Shown one piece after another: positions 1 through 8,914 of a stretch of 9,015 bases of DNA. The position numbers were made by a program, and so were the translations under genes. The stretch is from positions 1-9,015 of the forward strand of contig JAKLLP010000067.1 in NCBI GenBank assembly GCA_023150055.1, written 5' to 3'. The stretch is from Gammaproteobacteria bacterium. Lineage in GTDB: Bacteria > Pseudomonadota > Gammaproteobacteria > Steroidobacterales > GCA-2729495. Each line of letters begins with the position of its first letter. Position 1 is the stretch's first letter. Below the pieces are notes generated by a model, which did not search any database, had not been told where the DNA came from, and saw only the letters and a program-made list of their open reading frames with translations.

Positions 1-676
1 CGGACCCACGTGCCTGCACGGTATCTACCAGTATTTCGGGGACGAAATCACCCTGGCGGATGTCGTTGGCGGGGTGGACATGCTCACCGATGAAAGTGGC
101 GGCACGCTCGATGTGTTTCTGGCAAACCATGCGCTGTCCCGCGGCTATCGCGCGACATTATTCACCTACAACCTGTACCTGTTCGATCCGACGTGGGTCC
201 ACATGCCTGCAGGCGACCTGATCGCGCGCCTGCGGGCCCAGGCAGAAGCCAAAGACGATGCCAAGCTGCGCGCTGCCACCGCGGGCTACGTGCGTTTTCT
301 CGACCTCGGCGGCCGGCTTCGCTTCGAGGACCTGCGCCCGACACTGTTCCGGCGTTATCTCGGCCGCGGCGTACCGATCATGACCGGACTTTCCGCCACG
401 TACCTGTACCAGGCCCGGCGGGAAGTCCCGGAAACGTGCAGAGCCGACGATATCCGCGGCTTGCCCACCGGTCATTTCGTGGTGCTGTGTGGCTATCAGC
501 GAGGAACCCGGCTGGTTGACGTTGCCGATCCCTATGTATGGAATCCACTCGGTGGGCAGCACTACTACTCGGTGGATCTGAACCGGCTGATCGGGGCAGT
601 GTTGCTCGGCAGCCTCACCTACGATGCCAATCTTCTCGTGATCGAGCCTCCCAGGCGGCGACGATGGCGACGCTGA
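1..676 (+). CDS. C39-like papain-fold peptidase, C-terminal part (5' end outside window)
   Basis: The reading frame is open from the first complete codon (base 2) to the TGA at 674-676, giving 224 visible residues. The fragment opens with GPTCLHGIYQYFGDE, where Cys4 of the fragment (codon 11-13) fits the catalytic cysteine of C39-like papain-fold peptidases. A second block, GHFVVLCGYQ, carries the likely catalytic His158 (codon 473-475), and VDVADPYVW carries the likely third residue Asp176 (codon 527-529). The order Cys, His, Asp and the spacing match the family. From family knowledge, proteins of this type beside RLAN/RimK genes often carry a GNAT acetyltransferase domain in front; that part would lie upstream and cannot be seen here. 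The likely role is cleavage of a peptide or isopeptide bond in the pathway of the following ligases, which is inference. No start codon can be assigned because the Cys block sits at the window edge. The end overlaps the next gene by 13 bp. Confidence 0.85.
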   Translation, partial: GPTCLHGIYQYFGDEITLADVVGGVDMLTDESGGTLDVFLANHALSRGYRATLFTYNLYLFDPTWVHMPAGDLIARLRAQAEAKDDAKLRAATAGYVRFLDLGGRLRFEDLRPTLFRRYLGRGVPIMTGLSATYLYQARREVPETCRADDIRGLPTGHFVVLCGYQRGTRLVDVADPYVWNPLGGQHYYSVDLNRLIGAVLLGSLTYDANLLVIEPPRRRRWRR

Positions 677-2127
677 TTGTCGTCGACGAGCCAGCGGACT
701 GGCCTCTGCAGATCTCATCTGCCGAGGTGATCTCAGCGCGCTCCTACCTGACGGACAACCGCTTCAGCAGCCTGCGCAGGCCCCGCGTATACAACCTGTG
801 CGAATCCTATGCCTACCAGGCGAGCGGTTACTACGTGTCGCTACTCGCCGAGGCGCGTGGCCATCGACCGCTGCCGGATATTCTCACCATGCAGGACATC
901 AAGTCGCCTGCGCTCATCCGGCCGACGGAGGAGATCGAGGAGTTGATGCAGAAGGCGCTGCAGGGCAGAGAAGAGGAGCGCCTGGAGCTCAGTGTGTATT
1001 TTGGCCATCATTCCGAGCCGCGCTTTCAACGCCTGGCAAAGGCGCTGTTCAACGTGTTCCCGGTGCCGCTGCTCAGGGCGAGCTTCCTGCGCCGCCCGAA
1101 ATGGCGCCTGCAGGGCCTGCGGCCGATCCCGGTGGGGGATATCCCAGCTGAGCAGAGGGAGTTGCTCCGCGGCGCCATCGAGGAGCATTTCGCCCGGCGC
1201 ATGCCGGCGCCGAAGTCCGCGACCGCCCGCTACGAACTGGCAATACTCGTCAACCCGGCCGACAGGTCTCCACCCTCCGACCCTCCCGCAATAAGGAAAT
1301 TCGAGCGGGCCGGGGAAGCGCATGGCTTCGAAGTCGAGATCATCGGACCGGATGACTTCGGGCGGCTCGCCGAATTCGATGCCTTGTTCATTCGAGAGAC
1401 CACACGAGTCGATCACCACACTTACCGTTTTGCGAGCCGCGCGAAAAGTGAGGGCCTGATCGTGATCGACGACCCGGACTCGATCGTGCGCTGCGCGAAC
1501 AAGGTGTATCTGGCCGAGCTGATGGCGCGCCTGGCGATTCCGACCCCGAAAACCCTGATCGTCCATCGCAAGAACATCGACCGCGTCGAGGCCGAGCTCG
1601 GGCTGCCCTGCGTGCTGAAGCAACCGGACAGCAGTTTCTCCCAGGGGGTGGTGAAGGTGCAGGACAAGGTCGCGTTGCGTACGGCGCTGAAGCAGCTGCT
1701 CGGTCGCAGCGATCTGGTGGTGGCGCAGGAATATCTGCCGACTCCGTTCGACTGGCGGGTCGGCGTGCTGGATCGCAAGCCGCTTTACGTGTGTCGATAT
1801 TACATGGCGAGAAATCACTGGCAGATATACAAGCAGCATTCGGGTGGCCGAATGACGGCTGGCCGTTGGGATACCCTGCGGTTGGACGAAGCGCCACCGG
1901 ACGTCGTCGAGCTCGGATTGCGCGCCGCTAACGCCATCGGCGAGGGGTTTTACGGTGTGGACATCAAGGAGACCGACGGTCGTTATCTCGTCATCGAGGT
2001 AAACGATAACCCCAGCATCGAGCGTGGGGTCGAGGATCAGGTACTCGGAGACATGTTGTATGACGCGGTGATGCGTGTCATGCGTTCGCGCCTCGAGCTG
2101 GCGCGAGTCAATGGCATCAGCCGCTGA
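664..2127 (+). CDS. RimK-like ATP-grasp ligase with N-terminal RLAN domain
   Basis: This 487-residue protein belongs to the ATP-grasp carboxylate-amine ligases, which use ATP to make an acyl phosphate and join it to an amine. I chose ATG 664 because it gives the family-typical opening MATLIVVDEPADWPLQ and has an AGG 8 bases upstream; an in-frame ATG at 538 would run 42 residues back inside the peptidase gene. The first 160 or so residues are an RLAN domain, with the signature NLCESYAYQASGYYVSLLAE. Around residue 190 a pre-ATP-grasp region starts (ELAILVNPADR), followed by the ATP-grasp fold. Visible key sites are Lys319 in VLKQPDSS (nucleotide binding), the QEYLPTPFDWRVGVL strand, Asp433 in YGVDIK, and Glu445, Asn447 and Asn449 in VIEVNDNPS (metal binding). 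All look intact. The substrate is unknown; RimK itself adds glutamate to ribosomal protein S6, but RimK lacks the RLAN domain and this should not be called rimK. The stop overlaps the next start by 1 bp, so translation is probably coupled. Confidence 0.93.
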   Translation: MATLIVVDEPADWPLQISSAEVISARSYLTDNRFSSLRRPRVYNLCESYAYQASGYYVSLLAEARGHRPLPDILTMQDIKSPALIRPTEEIEELMQKALQGREEERLELSVYFGHHSEPRFQRLAKALFNVFPVPLLRASFLRRPKWRLQGLRPIPVGDIPAEQRELLRGAIEEHFARRMPAPKSATARYELAILVNPADRSPPSDPPAIRKFERAGEAHGFEVEIIGPDDFGRLAEFDALFIRETTRVDHHTYRFASRAKSEGLIVIDDPDSIVRCANKVYLAELMARLAIPTPKTLIVHRKNIDRVEAELGLPCVLKQPDSSFSQGVVKVQDKVALRTALKQLLGRSDLVVAQEYLPTPFDWRVGVLDRKPLYVCRYYMARNHWQIYKQHSGGRMTAGRWDTLRLDEAPPDVVELGLRAANAIGEGFYGVDIKETDGRYLVIEVNDNPSIERGVEDQVLGDMLYDAVMRVMRSRLELARVNGISR

Positions 2128-3377
2128 TGCTGTCCAGCGCGCTGCGCCTTTTCGAGGGTTACGGTGTCGAACTCGAGTACATGCTCGTGGATGCCGGGAC
2201 GCTTTGCGTGGCGCCACGGGCGGACTGGCTCCTGGCGGAAGCGGCTGGCGCAGAGACCGGCGAGTTCGAGAGCGGCGAGCTGGCCTGGAACAACGAGCTG
2301 GCCCTGCATGTCATCGAGCTGAAATTGCGTCGGCCAAGGCCGACGCTCAGTGACCTTGCGCCGGTGTTCCAGGCTGAGATCGGTAAAGTGAACCACCTGC
2401 TGGCGCAGCGTGATCTGCAGCTGATGCCCTCAGGTATGCACCCGTGGATGGACCCTGCGCGAGAGCTGCGCCTGTGGCCGCATGAGAACCGGGATATCTA
2501 TGCGGCGTTTGACCGCATCTTTTCATGCAAGGGTCATGGCTGGGCGAATCTGCAGAGCATGCATATCAATCTACCGTTCTCCGACGATGCAGAGTTCCGG
2601 CAGTTGCACACGGCGATACGCTTCCTGTTGCCGCTGTTGCCGGGGCTGGCGGCGAGTTCACCGGTGATGGACGGGCGCCGCACAGGTATCGCGGACAACC
2701 GACTGGCCGTCTACCGTCGCAATTGCGCCCGCATACCGTCCGTTACCGGCCTGGTCGTGCCGGAGGTGGTGACAGGGATCGATGATTACCAGGAGCGAAT
2801 TCTCGCGCGGATCTACGCGGATCTTGCTCCGCACGATCGAGAGGGGGTGTTGGCCGAGGAGTGGGTGAACGCGCGGGGCGCGATAGCGCGTTTCGATCGC
2901 ATGGCCATCGAGATCCGGGTGCTCGATGTCCAGGAGTGTCCACTCATGGATATTGCCTTCGCTCGCCTGATCGTAGCGACGCTGCGCGCCCTGTGTGGCG
3001 AAACGTGGTGCGATCTGCCGTCGCTGGAGGGGTGGCGGACCGAAGATCTCGCGCGGTACCTGGAGACCGTCGTCGAGCACGCAGAACGGGCGGAGATACA
3101 TGATCGCCGGTACCTGTCAGCACTGGGTTTTCCGGCCACATCGGCCCGGGTTGATCGACTGTGGGCGCATCTTGCCGAGCGCGCCGCGGTGCTGGGGCAG
3201 CTCGACCGCGGCTGCGAGCACGCCCTCGAGCATTATCTGCGCGCCGGCACGCTGGCGACCCGAATCGGCACCGCATTGCCGGCCGAGCCGGACCGGGCCG
3301 ATCTCGAGCATGTCTATCGTGAGCTGTGTGACTGTCTTGCGACCGGTCGCCCATTTGCCACTGCGGCGGGGCGGTAG
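2127..3377 (+). CDS. GCS2-type carboxylate-amine ligase (glutamate-cysteine ligase family)
   Basis: The 416-residue product fits the glutamine-synthetase-like GCS2 superfamily, which forms amide bonds between a gamma- or alpha-carboxylate and an amine with ATP. Motifs in order are GVELEYM with Glu15 and Glu17 (metal/ATP site), NNELALHVIELKL with Glu57 and Glu64, LQSMHINLPF with His146 and Asn148, the ASSPVMDGRRTG block (176-187), which resembles the NSPFWRGRDTG block of YbdK-like ligases, and MAIEIRVLD with Glu262 and Arg264. The glutamate-rich metal site therefore appears complete and the enzyme is likely active. The substrate cannot be read off; family membership does not prove glutamate or cysteine use. 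Its ATG shares its A with the upstream TGA, and the next gene begins one base past its TAG, so it sits firmly in the operon. A second ligase with a different fold next to an ATP-grasp ligase suggests two successive amide-forming steps, which is inference. Confidence 0.9.
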   Translation: MLSSALRLFEGYGVELEYMLVDAGTLCVAPRADWLLAEAAGAETGEFESGELAWNNELALHVIELKLRRPRPTLSDLAPVFQAEIGKVNHLLAQRDLQLMPSGMHPWMDPARELRLWPHENRDIYAAFDRIFSCKGHGWANLQSMHINLPFSDDAEFRQLHTAIRFLLPLLPGLAASSPVMDGRRTGIADNRLAVYRRNCARIPSVTGLVVPEVVTGIDDYQERILARIYADLAPHDREGVLAEEWVNARGAIARFDRMAIEIRVLDVQECPLMDIAFARLIVATLRALCGETWCDLPSLEGWRTEDLARYLETVVEHAERAEIHDRRYLSALGFPATSARVDRLWAHLAERAAVLGQLDRGCEHALEHYLRAGTLATRIGTALPAEPDRADLEHVYRELCDCLATGRPFATAAGR

Positions 3378-3378
3378 C

Positions 3379-4092
3379 TTGCGAGCACCGCTGGAGATAC
3401 TGGTCACCTGCGAGCATGGTGGTCGCGACGTGCCGGACAACTACCGGCAGCTGTTCCGAAGCGCCCAGAGGTTGCTTGCCTCCCACCGCGGCTACGACAT
3501 CGGTGCCCGCGAGGCCGCGCAGTATCTCAAGCGCCGTCTGCGGGCGCCGCTCGTCGTCGCTAACGTGACGCGCTTGCTGGTCGACTTGAACCGTTCACCC
3601 GGGCATCCGCGCCTTTTCTCTGAGCTTGTCCCGACCGAGGATAATCGGCTTCTCGAGCAGATCCTCAGCGATTACTACCATCCGTATCGCGATCTCGTCA
3701 GCGGCTGGATCGCCGCTCGCACGGCCGGTGGTGGTCGAGTGCTGCACCTGTCCGTCCACAGCTTCGTCGCTGCGCTCGATGGGCGAAGACGCAAGGCTGA
3801 CGTCGGCTTGCTCTATGACCCTTCGCGATTCCTGGAGAAGGCGTTCTGCCGGGATTGGCAGGAACGCCTGGTTGCCGGCGGCCGCTGGGTGGTGAGGCGT
3901 AACTACCCCTACCGCGGCACTGCCGACGGGTTCACGGTTGCGCTGAGGCGTCGATTCCCGGCGGGGGCCTATGTCGGTATCGAGATCGAGTTGAACCAGG
4001 GCACCCTGGAAAGCCACGATCGGCGGCTGGCGCTGTTGCGGGATCTGGCGACGACCCTGGGTATGTCGACGAAGGTGGTTTCGGCCGGCTGA
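3379..4092 (+). CDS. N-formylglutamate amidohydrolase-family hydrolase (TTG start)
   Basis: This is a zinc-type amidohydrolase of the N-formylglutamate amidohydrolase (HutG/FGase) family, 237 residues long with the start chosen. Family blocks are LVTCEHGGRDVP (Glu12, His13), GYDIGA (Asp40), TRLLVDLNRS (Arg65, Asp69, Asn71, Arg72), HLSVHSF (His127) and a late GIEIELNQ block. His13, Asp40 and His127 are plausible metal or catalytic residues. No ATG or GTG lies near the domain start; TTG 3379 puts the first domain block at residue 7, follows the upstream stop by one base, and has the purine-rich GGCGGGGCGG just before it, so it is preferred. A GTG at 3328 and TTGs at 3337 and 3355 are alternatives inside the previous gene. 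No histidine-degradation genes are nearby, so a role in hut catabolism is not supported. It more likely removes an acyl or amide group from an intermediate or product of the two ligases, which is inference. Confidence 0.88.
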   Translation: MRAPLEILVTCEHGGRDVPDNYRQLFRSAQRLLASHRGYDIGAREAAQYLKRRLRAPLVVANVTRLLVDLNRSPGHPRLFSELVPTEDNRLLEQILSDYYHPYRDLVSGWIAARTAGGGRVLHLSVHSFVAALDGRRRKADVGLLYDPSRFLEKAFCRDWQERLVAGGRWVVRRNYPYRGTADGFTVALRRRFPAGAYVGIEIELNQGTLESHDRRLALLRDLATTLGMSTKVVSAG

Positions 4093-4115: not shown

Positions 4116-4628
4116 TCAGGGGTGCCTTCGTGTCGGTGTGGGGCCGCCTTGGCCCTCACGTTCCCAGGTACGGTATTCGCAGCCCGGTTGATATCGGATC
4201 GGAGATTGTTCGCTCTCGGTGCGTGATGCAGCCAGCGTGTCATCGCTGCCGATTTCGAATGCGTCGAAGCCGCTCTGGTGAATCAGTTCCAGCGCCTCCC
4301 GCGGCACACGCCCCACGGCACGCAGTTCGCCCCGATAGCCCCAGTGTTCACGCAACAAACGGGCATGGCTGCAGGGGTGCAGGTCCCCGCCATTGGAAAA
4401 TTCCAGCGCGATCACCGCGAAGTGGTCGAGGTCGTCGGCGATGACCTCCGGGTGCTCGTCGCTGCGCAGGCGGATGCCGAACGGGTCGCGGCGGGTGACG
4501 AGCGTGCGCAAGTTGTCGAGCCACTGCCCGAGGCTCAGGATGACGGCGCCGGCCGGGGGAATCGTCGCACTCCGGCTGATGTCGGTAAATGGATCGGCGA
4601 TCAGTTCGCCGTTGCGGACCAGCGCCAT
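4116..4628 (-). CDS. DUF934 family protein
   Basis: The 170-residue protein matches DUF934 (COG3749) by its opening MALVRNGELIADPF, the block GIRLRSDEHPEVIADDLDHFAVIALEF, and the highly typical ARLLREHWGYRGELRAVG followed by SGFDAFEI. It has no signal peptide or membrane segment, so it is probably cytoplasmic. In many proteobacteria a DUF934 gene lies directly after the sulfite/nitrite reductase hemoprotein gene (cysI), and it is thought to support assimilatory sulfur reduction; its exact biochemical role is not established. Here no reductase gene is adjacent: upstream is a non-coding stretch and a small membrane protein gene, downstream is the convergent hydrolase gene. The ATG at 4628 is supported by a strong AGGAGG upstream. 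The stop is 23 bp from the stop of the facing plus-strand operon. Confidence 0.88.
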   Translation of the reverse strand: MALVRNGELIADPFTDISRSATIPPAGAVILSLGQWLDNLRTLVTRRDPFGIRLRSDEHPEVIADDLDHFAVIALEFSNGGDLHPCSHARLLREHWGYRGELRAVGRVPREALELIHQSGFDAFEIGSDDTLAASRTESEQSPIRYQPGCEYRTWEREGQGGPTPTRRHP

Positions 4629-5047: not shown

Positions 5048-6889
5048 TCAGCTCACCGCGGCGCGGCTACCGCCCGCCTGCAGAACGGGCACTCCCTCAC
5101 CCTCACCCGCTGCCTCGCCAAACTGCAGTTCGGCAAGGCGCGCATAAAGCGGGTCGCGGCTCACGAGTTCCTCGTGCGTGCCGATGTCGATGATTCGTCC
5201 ACGGTCCATGACGACGATCCGATCCGCCTTGAGCACGGTCGCCAGCCGATGAGCGATGATGATGGTGGTGCGATCCTGCATCAGCCGGTCGAGTGCGATC
5301 TGCACCAGCCGCTCATTTTCCGAGTCGAGCGAGCTGGTAGCTTCATCGAGCAGCAGTATCGGCGGGTTGCGCAATATTGCGCGGGCGATCGCGATGCGTT
5401 GCCGCTGGCCGCCAGACAGGCGGGTGCCGCGCTCGCCGAGAAAGGTGTCATATCCCTGCGGCAGTTCGCTCACGAAGCCATCAGCAACCGCCGAGCGTGC
5501 CGCCTCGCGTAACTGCTCTTCGGTGGCGGTTGGCTTGCCGAAACGGATGTTCTCGCGCGCCGTATCTCCGAAGATCACTGTCTCCTGCGGTACGACCCCG
5601 ATCCTGGCGCGGACCTCCTCCGGCCGTGCCCGGGATATGTCCACGCCGTCGATGAGGATGCGCCCCCCCTGCGGGTCGTAGAACCGCAGCAGGAGCTGGA
5701 AGGTGGTGCTCTTGCCGGCGCCCGAGGGTCCGACGAAGGCGATACGCTCACCGGGCCTGATCTCGAGGCTGAATTCGTCCAGCGCGCGTTGCTCGGGGCG
5801 GGAGGGGTAACTGAACTTCACGTTCTCGAAGCGGATGTGGCCTCGGCCGGGCGCCGGCATCGGCAGCGGCTGCTCCGGCGCTATGATCGCCGGTCGGGCG
5901 CTCAACAGTTCGACCATTCGCTCCATCGCCCCCGAAGCCCGCTGGATTTCCCCCCACATTTCCGTAAGTGAGCCCGCCGATGTTGCGGTGAACATCGCAT
6001 AGAGCAGGAACTGGCCGAGCTGGCCGTAGCTCATCTCGCCGCTGAGCACGGAACGTGCGCCGACCCAGATGACGAACGTGATGCCACCGAATACACATAC
6101 GAAGGTCACGAAGGTCATGATTGCCCGTACGCGGGTGCGGGCGATGGCAGTATCGAAGCTCGCCTCTACGGTATCGTGAAAGCGCTGGATCAGTATCGGT
6201 TCAGCCGTAAAGGACTGCACGATCTGCACGGCGTTCAGGGACTCGCTGGCCATCGCGCTGGTATCTGCGATGCGGTCCTGTGAGGCGCGTGACAGTCGGC
6301 GTACGTGCCGGCCGATCAGCACGATCGGCAGGATCACCGATGGAATGAAGAGCACGATGATGCCCATCAGCTTCAGGTTGGTGACCGCCAGCATCACCAG
6401 CGCGCCGGGCAGCTGCAACAGTGAGCGCAGCACCAGGGAGAACCCTACGCCAGCGATCGACTGGATGAGTGTGGTGTCCGCGGTGAGGCGCGACAGGACT
6501 TCCCCGGTACGTGTAACTTCGAAAAAAGTCGGATCCATGCGGATGACGTGCGCGTAGACGGCGTCACGCACGTCCGCGACGACACGCTCGCCGATCCACG
6601 CAATAAGGAAGTAGCGCAATGAGGCGAATGCGCAGAAGACGACGATCAGGCCGCCGAAAAGGAGGAAGTAGCGATTGATGGTCCCGCCGCTGCCCGACGA
6701 GAAGCCCTCGTCGATCACGAAGCGTGCCGCAACCGGCAGCGAGAGCATCAGCGCCGAGGCGATCAGCAGCGCGGCGACCGCCAGTAACAGCATTCCCCGG
6801 TAGCGGCGGAGGTAGGGTGCAAGCTGCAGCAGCGGCTGGAGCGAACGCCCCTTGGGTCGGTTACGGGCCTCTTCTTCGGGGGTGGGCAT
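5048..6889 (-). CDS. MsbA-like ABC exporter, fused permease and ATPase
   Basis: The 613-residue half-transporter carries an N-terminal membrane domain (about residues 30-320, six expected helices) and a C-terminal ATPase (about 350-590), the layout of homodimeric type IV exporters. All ATPase motifs are intact: A-loop Tyr361, Walker A GPSGAGKST (387-395), Q-loop Gln435, signature LSGGQ (491-495), Walker B ILLLDE (511-516) with catalytic Glu516, and switch His547. It resembles the MsbA-related proteobacterial group, but the cargo (lipid, drug or peptide) cannot be read from the sequence, so no symbol is given. ATG 6889 is the first possible start because an in-frame TAG lies only four codons upstream. 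There is no clear Shine-Dalgarno; a TAGATT box at 6901-6896 would place transcription start near the ATG. The 56-codon membrane gene follows after 9 bases. It stands 195 bp behind typA on the same strand. Confidence 0.93.
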   Translation of the reverse strand: MPTPEEEARNRPKGRSLQPLLQLAPYLRRYRGMLLLAVAALLIASALMLSLPVAARFVIDEGFSSGSGGTINRYFLLFGGLIVVFCAFASLRYFLIAWIGERVVADVRDAVYAHVIRMDPTFFEVTRTGEVLSRLTADTTLIQSIAGVGFSLVLRSLLQLPGALVMLAVTNLKLMGIIVLFIPSVILPIVLIGRHVRRLSRASQDRIADTSAMASESLNAVQIVQSFTAEPILIQRFHDTVEASFDTAIARTRVRAIMTFVTFVCVFGGITFVIWVGARSVLSGEMSYGQLGQFLLYAMFTATSAGSLTEMWGEIQRASGAMERMVELLSARPAIIAPEQPLPMPAPGRGHIRFENVKFSYPSRPEQRALDEFSLEIRPGERIAFVGPSGAGKSTTFQLLLRFYDPQGGRILIDGVDISRARPEEVRARIGVVPQETVIFGDTARENIRFGKPTATEEQLREAARSAVADGFVSELPQGYDTFLGERGTRLSGGQRQRIAIARAILRNPPILLLDEATSSLDSENERLVQIALDRLMQDRTTIIIAHRLATVLKADRIVVMDRGRIIDIGTHEELVSRDPLYARLAELQFGEAAGEGEGVPVLQAGGSRAAVS

Positions 6890-7084: not shown

Positions 7085-8914
7085 TCAGGCCTGGAGTCGC
7101 GAGGCGCGCTTGCGGTCCGCCTCTGTCAGCATCTTCTTTCGCAGGCGGATGCTCGTGGGGGTGACCTCGACGAGTTCGTCATCGTCGATGAACTCCAGCG
7201 CCTGCTCGAGCGAGAATCTAATAGGCGGTGTAAGCAGGATGTTCTCATCCGATCCCGCCGCGCGGACGTTGGTCAATTGCTTACCCTTGGTCGGATTGAC
7301 CACCAGGTCGTTGCCGCGGCTGTGGATGCCGAGAATCATTCCTTCGTAGACCGGCTCGCCATGGCCGATGAACAGGCGTCCGCGTTCCTGCAGGTTGAAC
7401 AGGGCATAGGCCAGTGCCTTGCCGGCAACATTCGAGACGAGTACGCCGTTCGTGCGTTGACCGATTGCCACCGGGACCCGCGGCGCATAGTGCTCGAACA
7501 CGTGATAGATGAGCCCGGTGCCCGCTGTCGCGGTCAGGTACTCGGTGCGAAAACCGATCAGCCCGCGCGCCGGAATGCGGTAATCGAGGCGCAGGCGCCC
7601 GCGGCCGTCGGGCTGCATCGCCACAAGTTCACCTTTGCGTTCCGCCAGTCGGCTCATGACGGCGCCCTGGTATTCCTCCGCAAAGTCCACCGTTAGTTGC
7701 TCCCACGGTTCGCAGCGGACTCCGTCGATTTCCTGTTCGATCACCTCGGGTCGGGAGACGGCGAGTTCGTAGCCCTCGCGGCGCATGTTTTCGATGAGTA
7801 CCGAGAGGTGCAGTTCCCCGCGGCCGGAGACCTTGAACTTGTCGGCGTCATCCGTGTTCTCGACCTTCAATGCCACGTTATGGAGCAATTCCTGGTCGAG
7901 GCGGGCGCGGATCTGCCGGCTGGTCAGGTACTTGCCCTCGCGCCCGGAAAAAGGCGACTTGTTGACCTGGAAGGTCATGCTGATGGTGGGTTCGTCCACG
8001 CGTAACGGCGGCAGTGCCTGCGGATAATTGCGGTCGCAGAGTGTGTCCGAGATATGCAGGGAATCGATACCGCTGAAGGCGACGATATCGCCGGCTCTGG
8101 CCTGGTCGATACGCTGACGCTCGAGCCCGAGAAAGCCATACAAATCCATGAGGCGTGCGGGGCGCACCGTGCCATCGGCACTGGCTACCGACACCGGAGT
8201 ATTCGCTGTGGCCGTGCCGCGGCTGACCCTGCCCACACCGAGTACTCCGACGTAGGCGTCGTAGCCGAGACTCGACACCTGCAACTGCAGTGGACCGGCG
8301 GTATCGACCTCGGGTGGTGGAACATGCTCGATGATCGCCCGGAACAGTGGCGTCATGTCGCCCTCGCGGATGTCCGGGGTGCTGCCCGCATAGCCGCGCA
8401 GTGCGGAAGCGTAGATGACCGGGAAGTCGAGTTGACGGTCGGTGGCGCCGAGCCGGTCGAATAGGTCGAAGGTCTGGTCGAGGACCCAGTCTGGCCTGGC
8501 GCCGTCACGGTCGATCTTGTTGACCACGACAATTGGCGTGAAGCCGAACGCAAACGCCTTCTGCGTCACGAAACGCGTCTGTGGCATGGGGCCATCGACT
8601 GCATCGACCAGGAGCAAAACGCTATCGACCATGGACAGCACCCGCTCGACCTCGCCGCCAAAATCCGCGTGACCCGGCGTATCGACGATATTGATGCGCC
8701 ATTCGTTCCAGCGGATCGCGGTGTTCTTGGCGAGTATGGTGATGCCGCGCTCACGCTCGAGATCGTTCGAGTCCATGGCCCGCTCGGGCAGGATGGTGCG
8801 ATCGTCCAGCGTGCCCGACTGCTTGAGCAGCTGGTCGACCAGCGTGGTCTTGCCGTGATCGACGTGCGCGATGATCGCGACGTTCCGCACGTCGGAGCGA
8901 GTCGGGGGTGTCAT
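7085..8914 (-). CDS. typA: Translational GTPase TypA/BipA
   Basis: This is a full-length TypA (BipA), 609 residues against about 607 in Escherichia coli. TypA is a ribosome-binding GTPase of the EF-G class that helps assembly of the large subunit and growth in cold or stress. The G-domain motifs are intact: G1 AHVDHGKTT (16-24), G2 RGITI (56-60), G3 DTPGHADF (78-85), G4 NKID (132-135) and G5 SALRG near residue 170. The C-terminal TypA region contains [20 protein letters not shown] and [19 protein letters not shown], both characteristic. ATG 8914 is chosen because the opening [19 protein letters not shown] lines up with family starts. The Shine-Dalgarno is weak, and a GC-rich stem overlaps the region just before the start. 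The gene appears to be single, separated by 195 bp from the exporter gene downstream. Confidence 0.97.

What the first reader, a model, noticed from the sequence alone, without database searches (positions are those of the whole stretch)
1..4092. Compact operon with two unrelated amide ligases, a peptidase and an amidohydrolase of unknown product
The sequence shows a C39-like peptidase, an RLAN-ATP-grasp ligase, a GCS2 ligase and an N-formylglutamate amidohydrolase-family enzyme, all with intact active-site motifs and almost no spacing. ATP-grasp and GCS2 are two separate solutions to amide-bond formation, so finding both with a peptide-bond cleaver and an N-acyl hydrolase suggests a full make-and-trim pathway for a peptide-like metabolite or protein tag. 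Similar sets have been noted in comparative surveys of amidoligases, but I know of no proven product.
Basis: partly seen in the sequence, partly recalled or inferred. Interest (0 to 1): 0.7.

Follow-up and report, generated by a model that had tools for sequence, protein, structure and literature searches.

The report
Widespread two-ligase peptide-building operon
Four packed genes, found side by side in bacteria of many phyla, encode two unrelated amide-ligase family proteins, a papain-like cysteine enzyme and an amidohydrolase that are predicted to build and then trim a small capped peptide; related bacteria carry a GNAT acyltransferase gene where this set has one of the ligases, so the two enzymes likely add the same kind of cap, and the product is unknown.

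Summary
The four-gene set is real. RLAN-ATP-grasp (664-2127), GCS2 (2127-3377) and FGase (about 3379-4092) are complete; the C39-like gene is cut by the contig end, and its presumed catalytic Cys is lost with it. RLAN is followed by GCS2 in 66 of 80 named-genome loci from many phyla, in all but five of them behind a C39-like gene. Among 162 distinct RLAN loci, 87 have GCS2 beside RLAN and 67 others have GNAT instead; 1 of the 87 has both. FGase accompanies 59 of the 87 and 0 of the 67. The RLAN tree needs three partner changes. In the GNAT type a DUF3335 domain, homologous to the window's C39, is near in 43 of 67. So GCS2 and GNAT probably acylate the same amine. The C39 model resembles primitive phytochelatin synthase and C39 peptidases equally; the ATP-grasp is LysX/ArgX/RimK-like. 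I infer a glutathione-like, glutamyl-capped small peptide, trimmed by C39 and FGase. RLAN systems were predicted to make peptides in 2009 (recalled; paper not held), so this is a variant of a known, uncharacterised kind. No product was shown.

The parts
1..676 (+). C39-like (papain-fold) cysteine peptidase or transpeptidase, 5' end cut by the contig end; base 1 is, by alignment, the last base of the presumed catalytic Cys codon
   Evidence: fold of the complete relative L051
664..2127 (+). RLAN domain fused to a LysX/ArgX/RimK-like ATP-grasp ligase
2127..3377 (+). GCS2-family (YbdK-like) carboxylate-amine ligase, divergent subfamily
3379..4092 (+). FGase (N-formylglutamate amidohydrolase-like) enzyme; the TTG start at 3379 is my reading

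Best explanation
These four adjacent genes encode two unrelated amide-ligase family proteins, a papain-family cysteine enzyme and a FGase-family amidohydrolase, and together they likely build, trim and turn over a small glutathione-like peptide with a glutamyl-type cap on its amino end. Inferred steps: (1) GCS2 uses ATP to join a glutamate carboxylate to the amine of an amino acid or short peptide, which makes the cap; (2) the RLAN-ATP-grasp enzyme activates a carboxylate as an acyl phosphate and adds an amino acid, probably of the glutamate family; (3) the C39-like enzyme forms a thioester and hydrolyses or transfers the peptide; (4) FGase cleaves the glutamyl-type amide for trimming or recycling. 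In the sister type a GNAT enzyme, often fused to the C39-like domain, probably adds an acyl cap instead of GCS2. Shown here: the genes, their conserved order, the predicted folds of two models and the GCS2/GNAT exchange. Not shown: any reaction, substrate or product.
Against: The cap's identity rests on family habits: GCS2 scores far below every curated cut-off (best 52.4 against 176.4). The C39 fold fits plain peptidases as well as phytochelatin synthase. By spacing alone, the Lys and Tyr that form the second-substrate site of phytochelatin synthase (PMC3855540, passages) fall on N198 and P199 here. My FGase profile finds none in 28 of 87 GCS2 loci; 7 of these end within 700 bases of GCS2 and L098 has a FGase by Pfam, but the rest, three of them in the window's own genus (L037, L038, L040), show that FGase is not essential to the core. 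GshB's domain is present in all 24 RLAN-bearing relatives, so this does not replace glutathione there. Loci of each type are related by descent; only three exchanges are independent, and their direction is unsure. The EgtC-like link is small.
Confidence: 0.4

Rival explanations
1. Protein tagging: the ATP-grasp enzyme would add amino acids to a protein carboxyl end, as RimK does on ribosomal protein S6, GCS2 would cap or branch the tag, and C39 and FGase would remove it.
Against: No target protein gene was seen to travel with the operon: among 198 neighbour proteins no Pfam family matched more than 4; a target encoded elsewhere would not show. LysX/ArgX score slightly higher than RimK, by about 1 Z.
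Confidence: 0.2
2. Protecting-group pathway: glutamate would be attached to an amine by GCS2 only to guard it, as in butirosin or ergothioneine biosynthesis (recalled), and later be removed by FGase or an EgtC-like hydrolase, leaving a product without glutamate.
For: FGase was found only with the GCS2 type (59 of 87 against 0 of 67); EgtC-like neighbours in 4 of 103 loci.
Against: No dedicated biosynthetic neighbours recur, and the GNAT type would need a different guard.
Confidence: 0.15
3. Ribosomal peptide modification: the ligases would act on a small precursor peptide encoded nearby.
For: ATP-grasp and C39 enzymes occur in ribosomal peptide pathways (recalled); PsnB (7dro) is among the Foldseek matches of the RLAN-ATP-grasp model.
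Against: 1432 small ORFs around 87 GCS2 loci gave no convincing conserved family: the largest cluster (39 loci) looked low in complexity from the one member printed, and the next (6 loci) is confined to one genus.
Confidence: 0.05

Closest known systems
RLAN (PF14401) ATP-grasp neighbourhoods predicted to make peptides (Iyer et al. 2009, PMC3268129; not held, recalled)
   Same: RLAN-ATP-grasp beside a papain-like peptidase; Pfam's text, as I recall it, also lists GCS2 among neighbours
   Different: 58 of the 60 Pseudomonadota loci read have GNAT beside RLAN; the window type has a separate C39 gene, GCS2 and FGase and no GNAT
GNAT-DUF3335 (PF11814) fusion with RLAN
   Same: Homologous C39-like domain and homologous RLAN ligase
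   Different: GNAT in place of GCS2; no FGase near in 67 of 67 GNAT loci
Glutathione synthesis and phytochelatin synthase
   Same: A GCS2-type ligase, an ATP-grasp ligase and a papain-fold enzyme like Alr0975
   Different: No GSH-S_N match in the window's ATP-grasp and no PF05023 match in the C39 relative L044; GshB's domain exists separately in the relatives
N-acetylglutaminylglutamine amide (NAGGN) trio (recalled)
   Same: An N-cap enzyme plus an ATP-grasp ligase plus a peptidase; L182 and L187 fuse GNAT to RLAN
   Different: No amidotransferase among the window's genes, and none of the families listed is a NAGGN model (model names recalled)
LysX/ArgX with carrier LysW
   Same: Closest ATP-grasp fold
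   Different: Far below the equivalog cut-off (74.9 against 275.6); no carrier protein gene noticed in the window, not searched in the genomes

Membership tests
RLAN-ATP-grasp peptide-synthesis systems | RLAN domain fused to ATP-grasp | tested here: met
RLAN-ATP-grasp peptide-synthesis systems | papain-like/C39-like enzyme encoded alongside | tested here: met
   80 of 87 distinct GCS2 loci
RLAN-ATP-grasp peptide-synthesis systems | GNAT partner (typical form) | tested here: not met
   No GNAT among the window's seven proteins; 86 of 87 distinct GCS2 loci lack one within 1.8 kb. I read this as a variant, not exclusion, because GCS2 neighbours are recalled as part of the family's description
Glutathione synthesis | GCS at curated score and GshB with GSH-S_N | tested here: not met
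Phytochelatin synthase | PF05023 match | tested here: not met
   L044 matched only PF13529 and PF03412 at E up to 0.001
Phytochelatin synthase | Cys-His-Asp triad, oxyanion Gln six residues before Cys, His-Asp spacing 18 | tested here: met
   C18, Q12, H175, D193 in 39 of 39; AtPCS1 Q50, C56, H162, D180. Shared in kind with papain-fold enzymes at large
Phytochelatin synthase | second-substrate residues (Arg152, Lys185, Tyr186 of AtPCS1) | tested here: inconclusive
   by spacing only, N198 and P199 stand for Lys185 and Tyr186; loops were not superposed
N-formylglutamate amidohydrolase family | PF05013 over its cut-off and conserved His/Glu/Asn-Arg residues | tested here: met
N-formylglutamate amidohydrolase family | activity on N-formylglutamate | not testable with these tools
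   needs an assay
Ergothioneine (EgtA route) | EgtB and EgtD genes with the GCS2 gene | not tested
   neighbour lists of seven loci were only looked over

The most novel reading that the evidence does not exclude
Probability: 0.3. Interest if true: 0.75.

Novelty: new variant of a known kind. Interest (0 to 1): 0.5.

Why it matters
RLAN enzymes occur in about a fifth of the sampled Pseudomonadota genomes (81 of 397) and in many other phyla, yet no product was found in the papers searched. The GCS2/GNAT exchange narrows what the second ligase does (probably cap the same amine), ties FGase to the GCS2 type, and turns a 2009 prediction into a short list of assays.

Tried and rejected
Glutathione replacement: rejected for this order, because all 24 RLAN-bearing relatives also have GSH-S_N. 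The window's own incomplete genome (73%) gave no GSH-S_N match, which I do not interpret.

Fifth conserved gene: none found. I gave Pfam 198 of the 242 neighbour proteins picked (up to two genes on each side, by my own rough gene caller; the 44 left out are mostly from RLAN-only loci). GATase_4 matched 4 of 103 and CN_hydrolase 2 of 95. Ribosomal precursor peptide: none convincing.

Homology searches of the protein database reached the 8000-candidate limit and listed only near relatives; I saw no informative fusion in the 120 rows of each. The GCS2 profile gave only a lectin among solved structures, which I take as spurious. VIA-align covered residues 189-484 of the RLAN model, so the fold of the RLAN domain itself stays untested.

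L051 was dropped from the later counts because its RLAN gene is the one in L044, and L074 proved to repeat L028; still count L074, so their totals of 163, 88 and 60 are 162, 87 and 59 here. The 60 Pseudomonadota loci are 60 of the 84 places found, picked by me roughly from the best score down, with some same-genus places skipped. Context labels use distance limits (GCS2 and C39 1.2 kb, GNAT and DUF3335 1.8 kb, FGase 3.2 kb); contigs that end early count as lacking a partner (7 of the 28 GCS2 loci without FGase end within 700 bases of GCS2). Eight of 162 loci had neither GCS2 nor GNAT. The DUF3335 profile was built from 41 tails of these same loci, and the EgtC-like profile from three of its four hits. 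The tree is a quick one and its direction depends on a midpoint root; L148 has a long branch.

Papers: PMC10318531, PMC12096838, PMC12239564, PMC4431377 and PMC3855540 were read as passages only; other papers only as search listings; Iyer 2009 and Pfam's RLAN text are recalled.

Full report
What is in the window. The window is one whole contig of an incomplete genome (G000:C481, 9015 bases). On the + strand lie a C39-like gene (to 676, start missing), an RLAN-ATP-grasp gene (664-2127), a GCS2 gene (2127-3377) and a FGase gene (about 3379-4092), with overlaps or a gap of one base between them. Pfam supports three of the four well over their cut-offs; the C39 fragment is below its own, but the complete relative L044 is above it. 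The presumed catalytic Cys, invariant in 39 of 39 aligned relatives, is lost at the contig end: base 1 is, by alignment, the third base of its codon. Selection looks purifying in all four (dN/dS 0.10-0.33 against L036, with dS near saturation).

Conservation. RLAN occurs in 25 of 147 genomes of the window's order (G000 included). In the 24 others, GCS2 follows RLAN in 22. In 80 named loci the order by BLAST was all four genes in 40 (36 plain and 4 with a split or extra hit), C39-RLAN-GCS2 in 21, RLAN alone in 10, C39-RLAN in 4, RLAN-GCS2 in 4 and RLAN-GCS2-FGase in 1. The record titles include Pseudomonadota, Bacteroidota, Planctomycetota, Verrucomicrobia, Spirochaetes, Nitrospirota, Omnitrophota, Ignavibacteria and desulfobacterial groups. 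This is far beyond chance linkage.

Two kinds of RLAN locus. In a sample of Pseudomonadota, RLAN is in 81 of 397 genomes. Of 60 fetched places (of 84), 40 have GNAT with DUF3335 nearby, 17 GNAT only, 1 (L191) GNAT with a hit to the C39 profile, 1 (L148) the window type and 1 (L136) neither. In 41 cases the DUF3335 part sits in one frame behind the GNAT, and Pfam confirms it in the two tested. DUF3335 is in 62 of 397 genomes drawn the same way, and 61 of these bear RLAN (Fisher p 5e-53, not corrected for descent). In the window's order DUF3335 is in 3 of 147 genomes, none of them a GCS2-type genome.

Exchange of the second enzyme. Over 162 distinct loci, GCS2 is near RLAN in 87 and GNAT without GCS2 in 67; only L048 has both, and 8 have neither. 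FGase goes with 59 of 87 and 0 of 67. On a tree of 165 RLAN proteins (164 different), 156 labelled rows need three changes: a clade of 62 rows, a clade of 6 (both SH-aLRT 100), and one single row, L113. The direction is not secure. The C39 and DUF3335 profiles align over 163 columns with probability 97.2. The simplest reading is that GCS2 and GNAT do equivalent jobs, acylation of an amine on the molecule that the RLAN ligase extends, and that FGase acts on the GCS2-made bond.

Mechanism. Shown: genes, order, exchange, predicted folds. Inferred: GCS2 makes a glutamyl-type amide; the ATP-grasp enzyme adds an amino acid; the C39-like enzyme trims or transfers; FGase decaps. The small-molecule reading is preferred over tagging because no target gene was seen to travel with the set, but it is no more than a preference (0.4 against 0.2).

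Novelty. RLAN systems were predicted to be peptide makers in 2009 (recalled). Ten literature searches listed no experimental work on this set (open-licence PubMed Central papers only; one search was on phytochelatin synthase, and one search listed 20 of 33 papers that hold the title of the 2009 study). The quantified GCS2/GNAT exchange and the restriction of FGase to the GCS2 type are what I add.

Noticed in passing
L054:6208-7011, L063:1283-2119, L071:11436-12296, L082:11435-12295: EgtC-like class II glutamine amidotransferase beside the operon in 4 of 103 loci and 0 of 60 Pseudomonadota loci; L054, L063 and L071 match TIGR03442 below its cut-off
   Followed up: partly
L111:10775-12337; also L033, L103 and partial hits in L039 and L135: GNAT-nitrilase fusion, in L111 inserted between GCS2 and FGase
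   Followed up: partly
L182 and L187: GNAT fused in frame to RLAN-ATP-grasp, plus a separate GNAT-DUF3335
   Followed up: no
L129:11674-12636: A second ATP-grasp with an L-amino acid ligase C-terminal domain downstream of the operon
   Followed up: no
L047, L056, L103; L037, L038, L040: FGase, C39 and GCS2 respectively appear split into two frames in the first three; no FGase hit behind GCS2 in the last three
   Followed up: no
L065:10702-11964: FGase frame continues into a weak HD-domain match, below its cut-off
   Followed up: no
L055, L058, L061, L079, L084, L096, L112, L129: DnaJ-type gene near the operon in 8 loci, four of them Pontibacter
   Followed up: no
window 4116-4628, 5048-6889, 7085-8914, all - strand: DUF934, an MsbA-related ABC transporter and TypA/BipA; in the 24 relatives the ABC-TypA pair was found beside the operon only in the window's genus
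   Followed up: no
L081:10741-11796: AstE/AspA-type deacylase beside a C39-RLAN-GCS2 set that lacks FGase, perhaps a substitute
   Followed up: no
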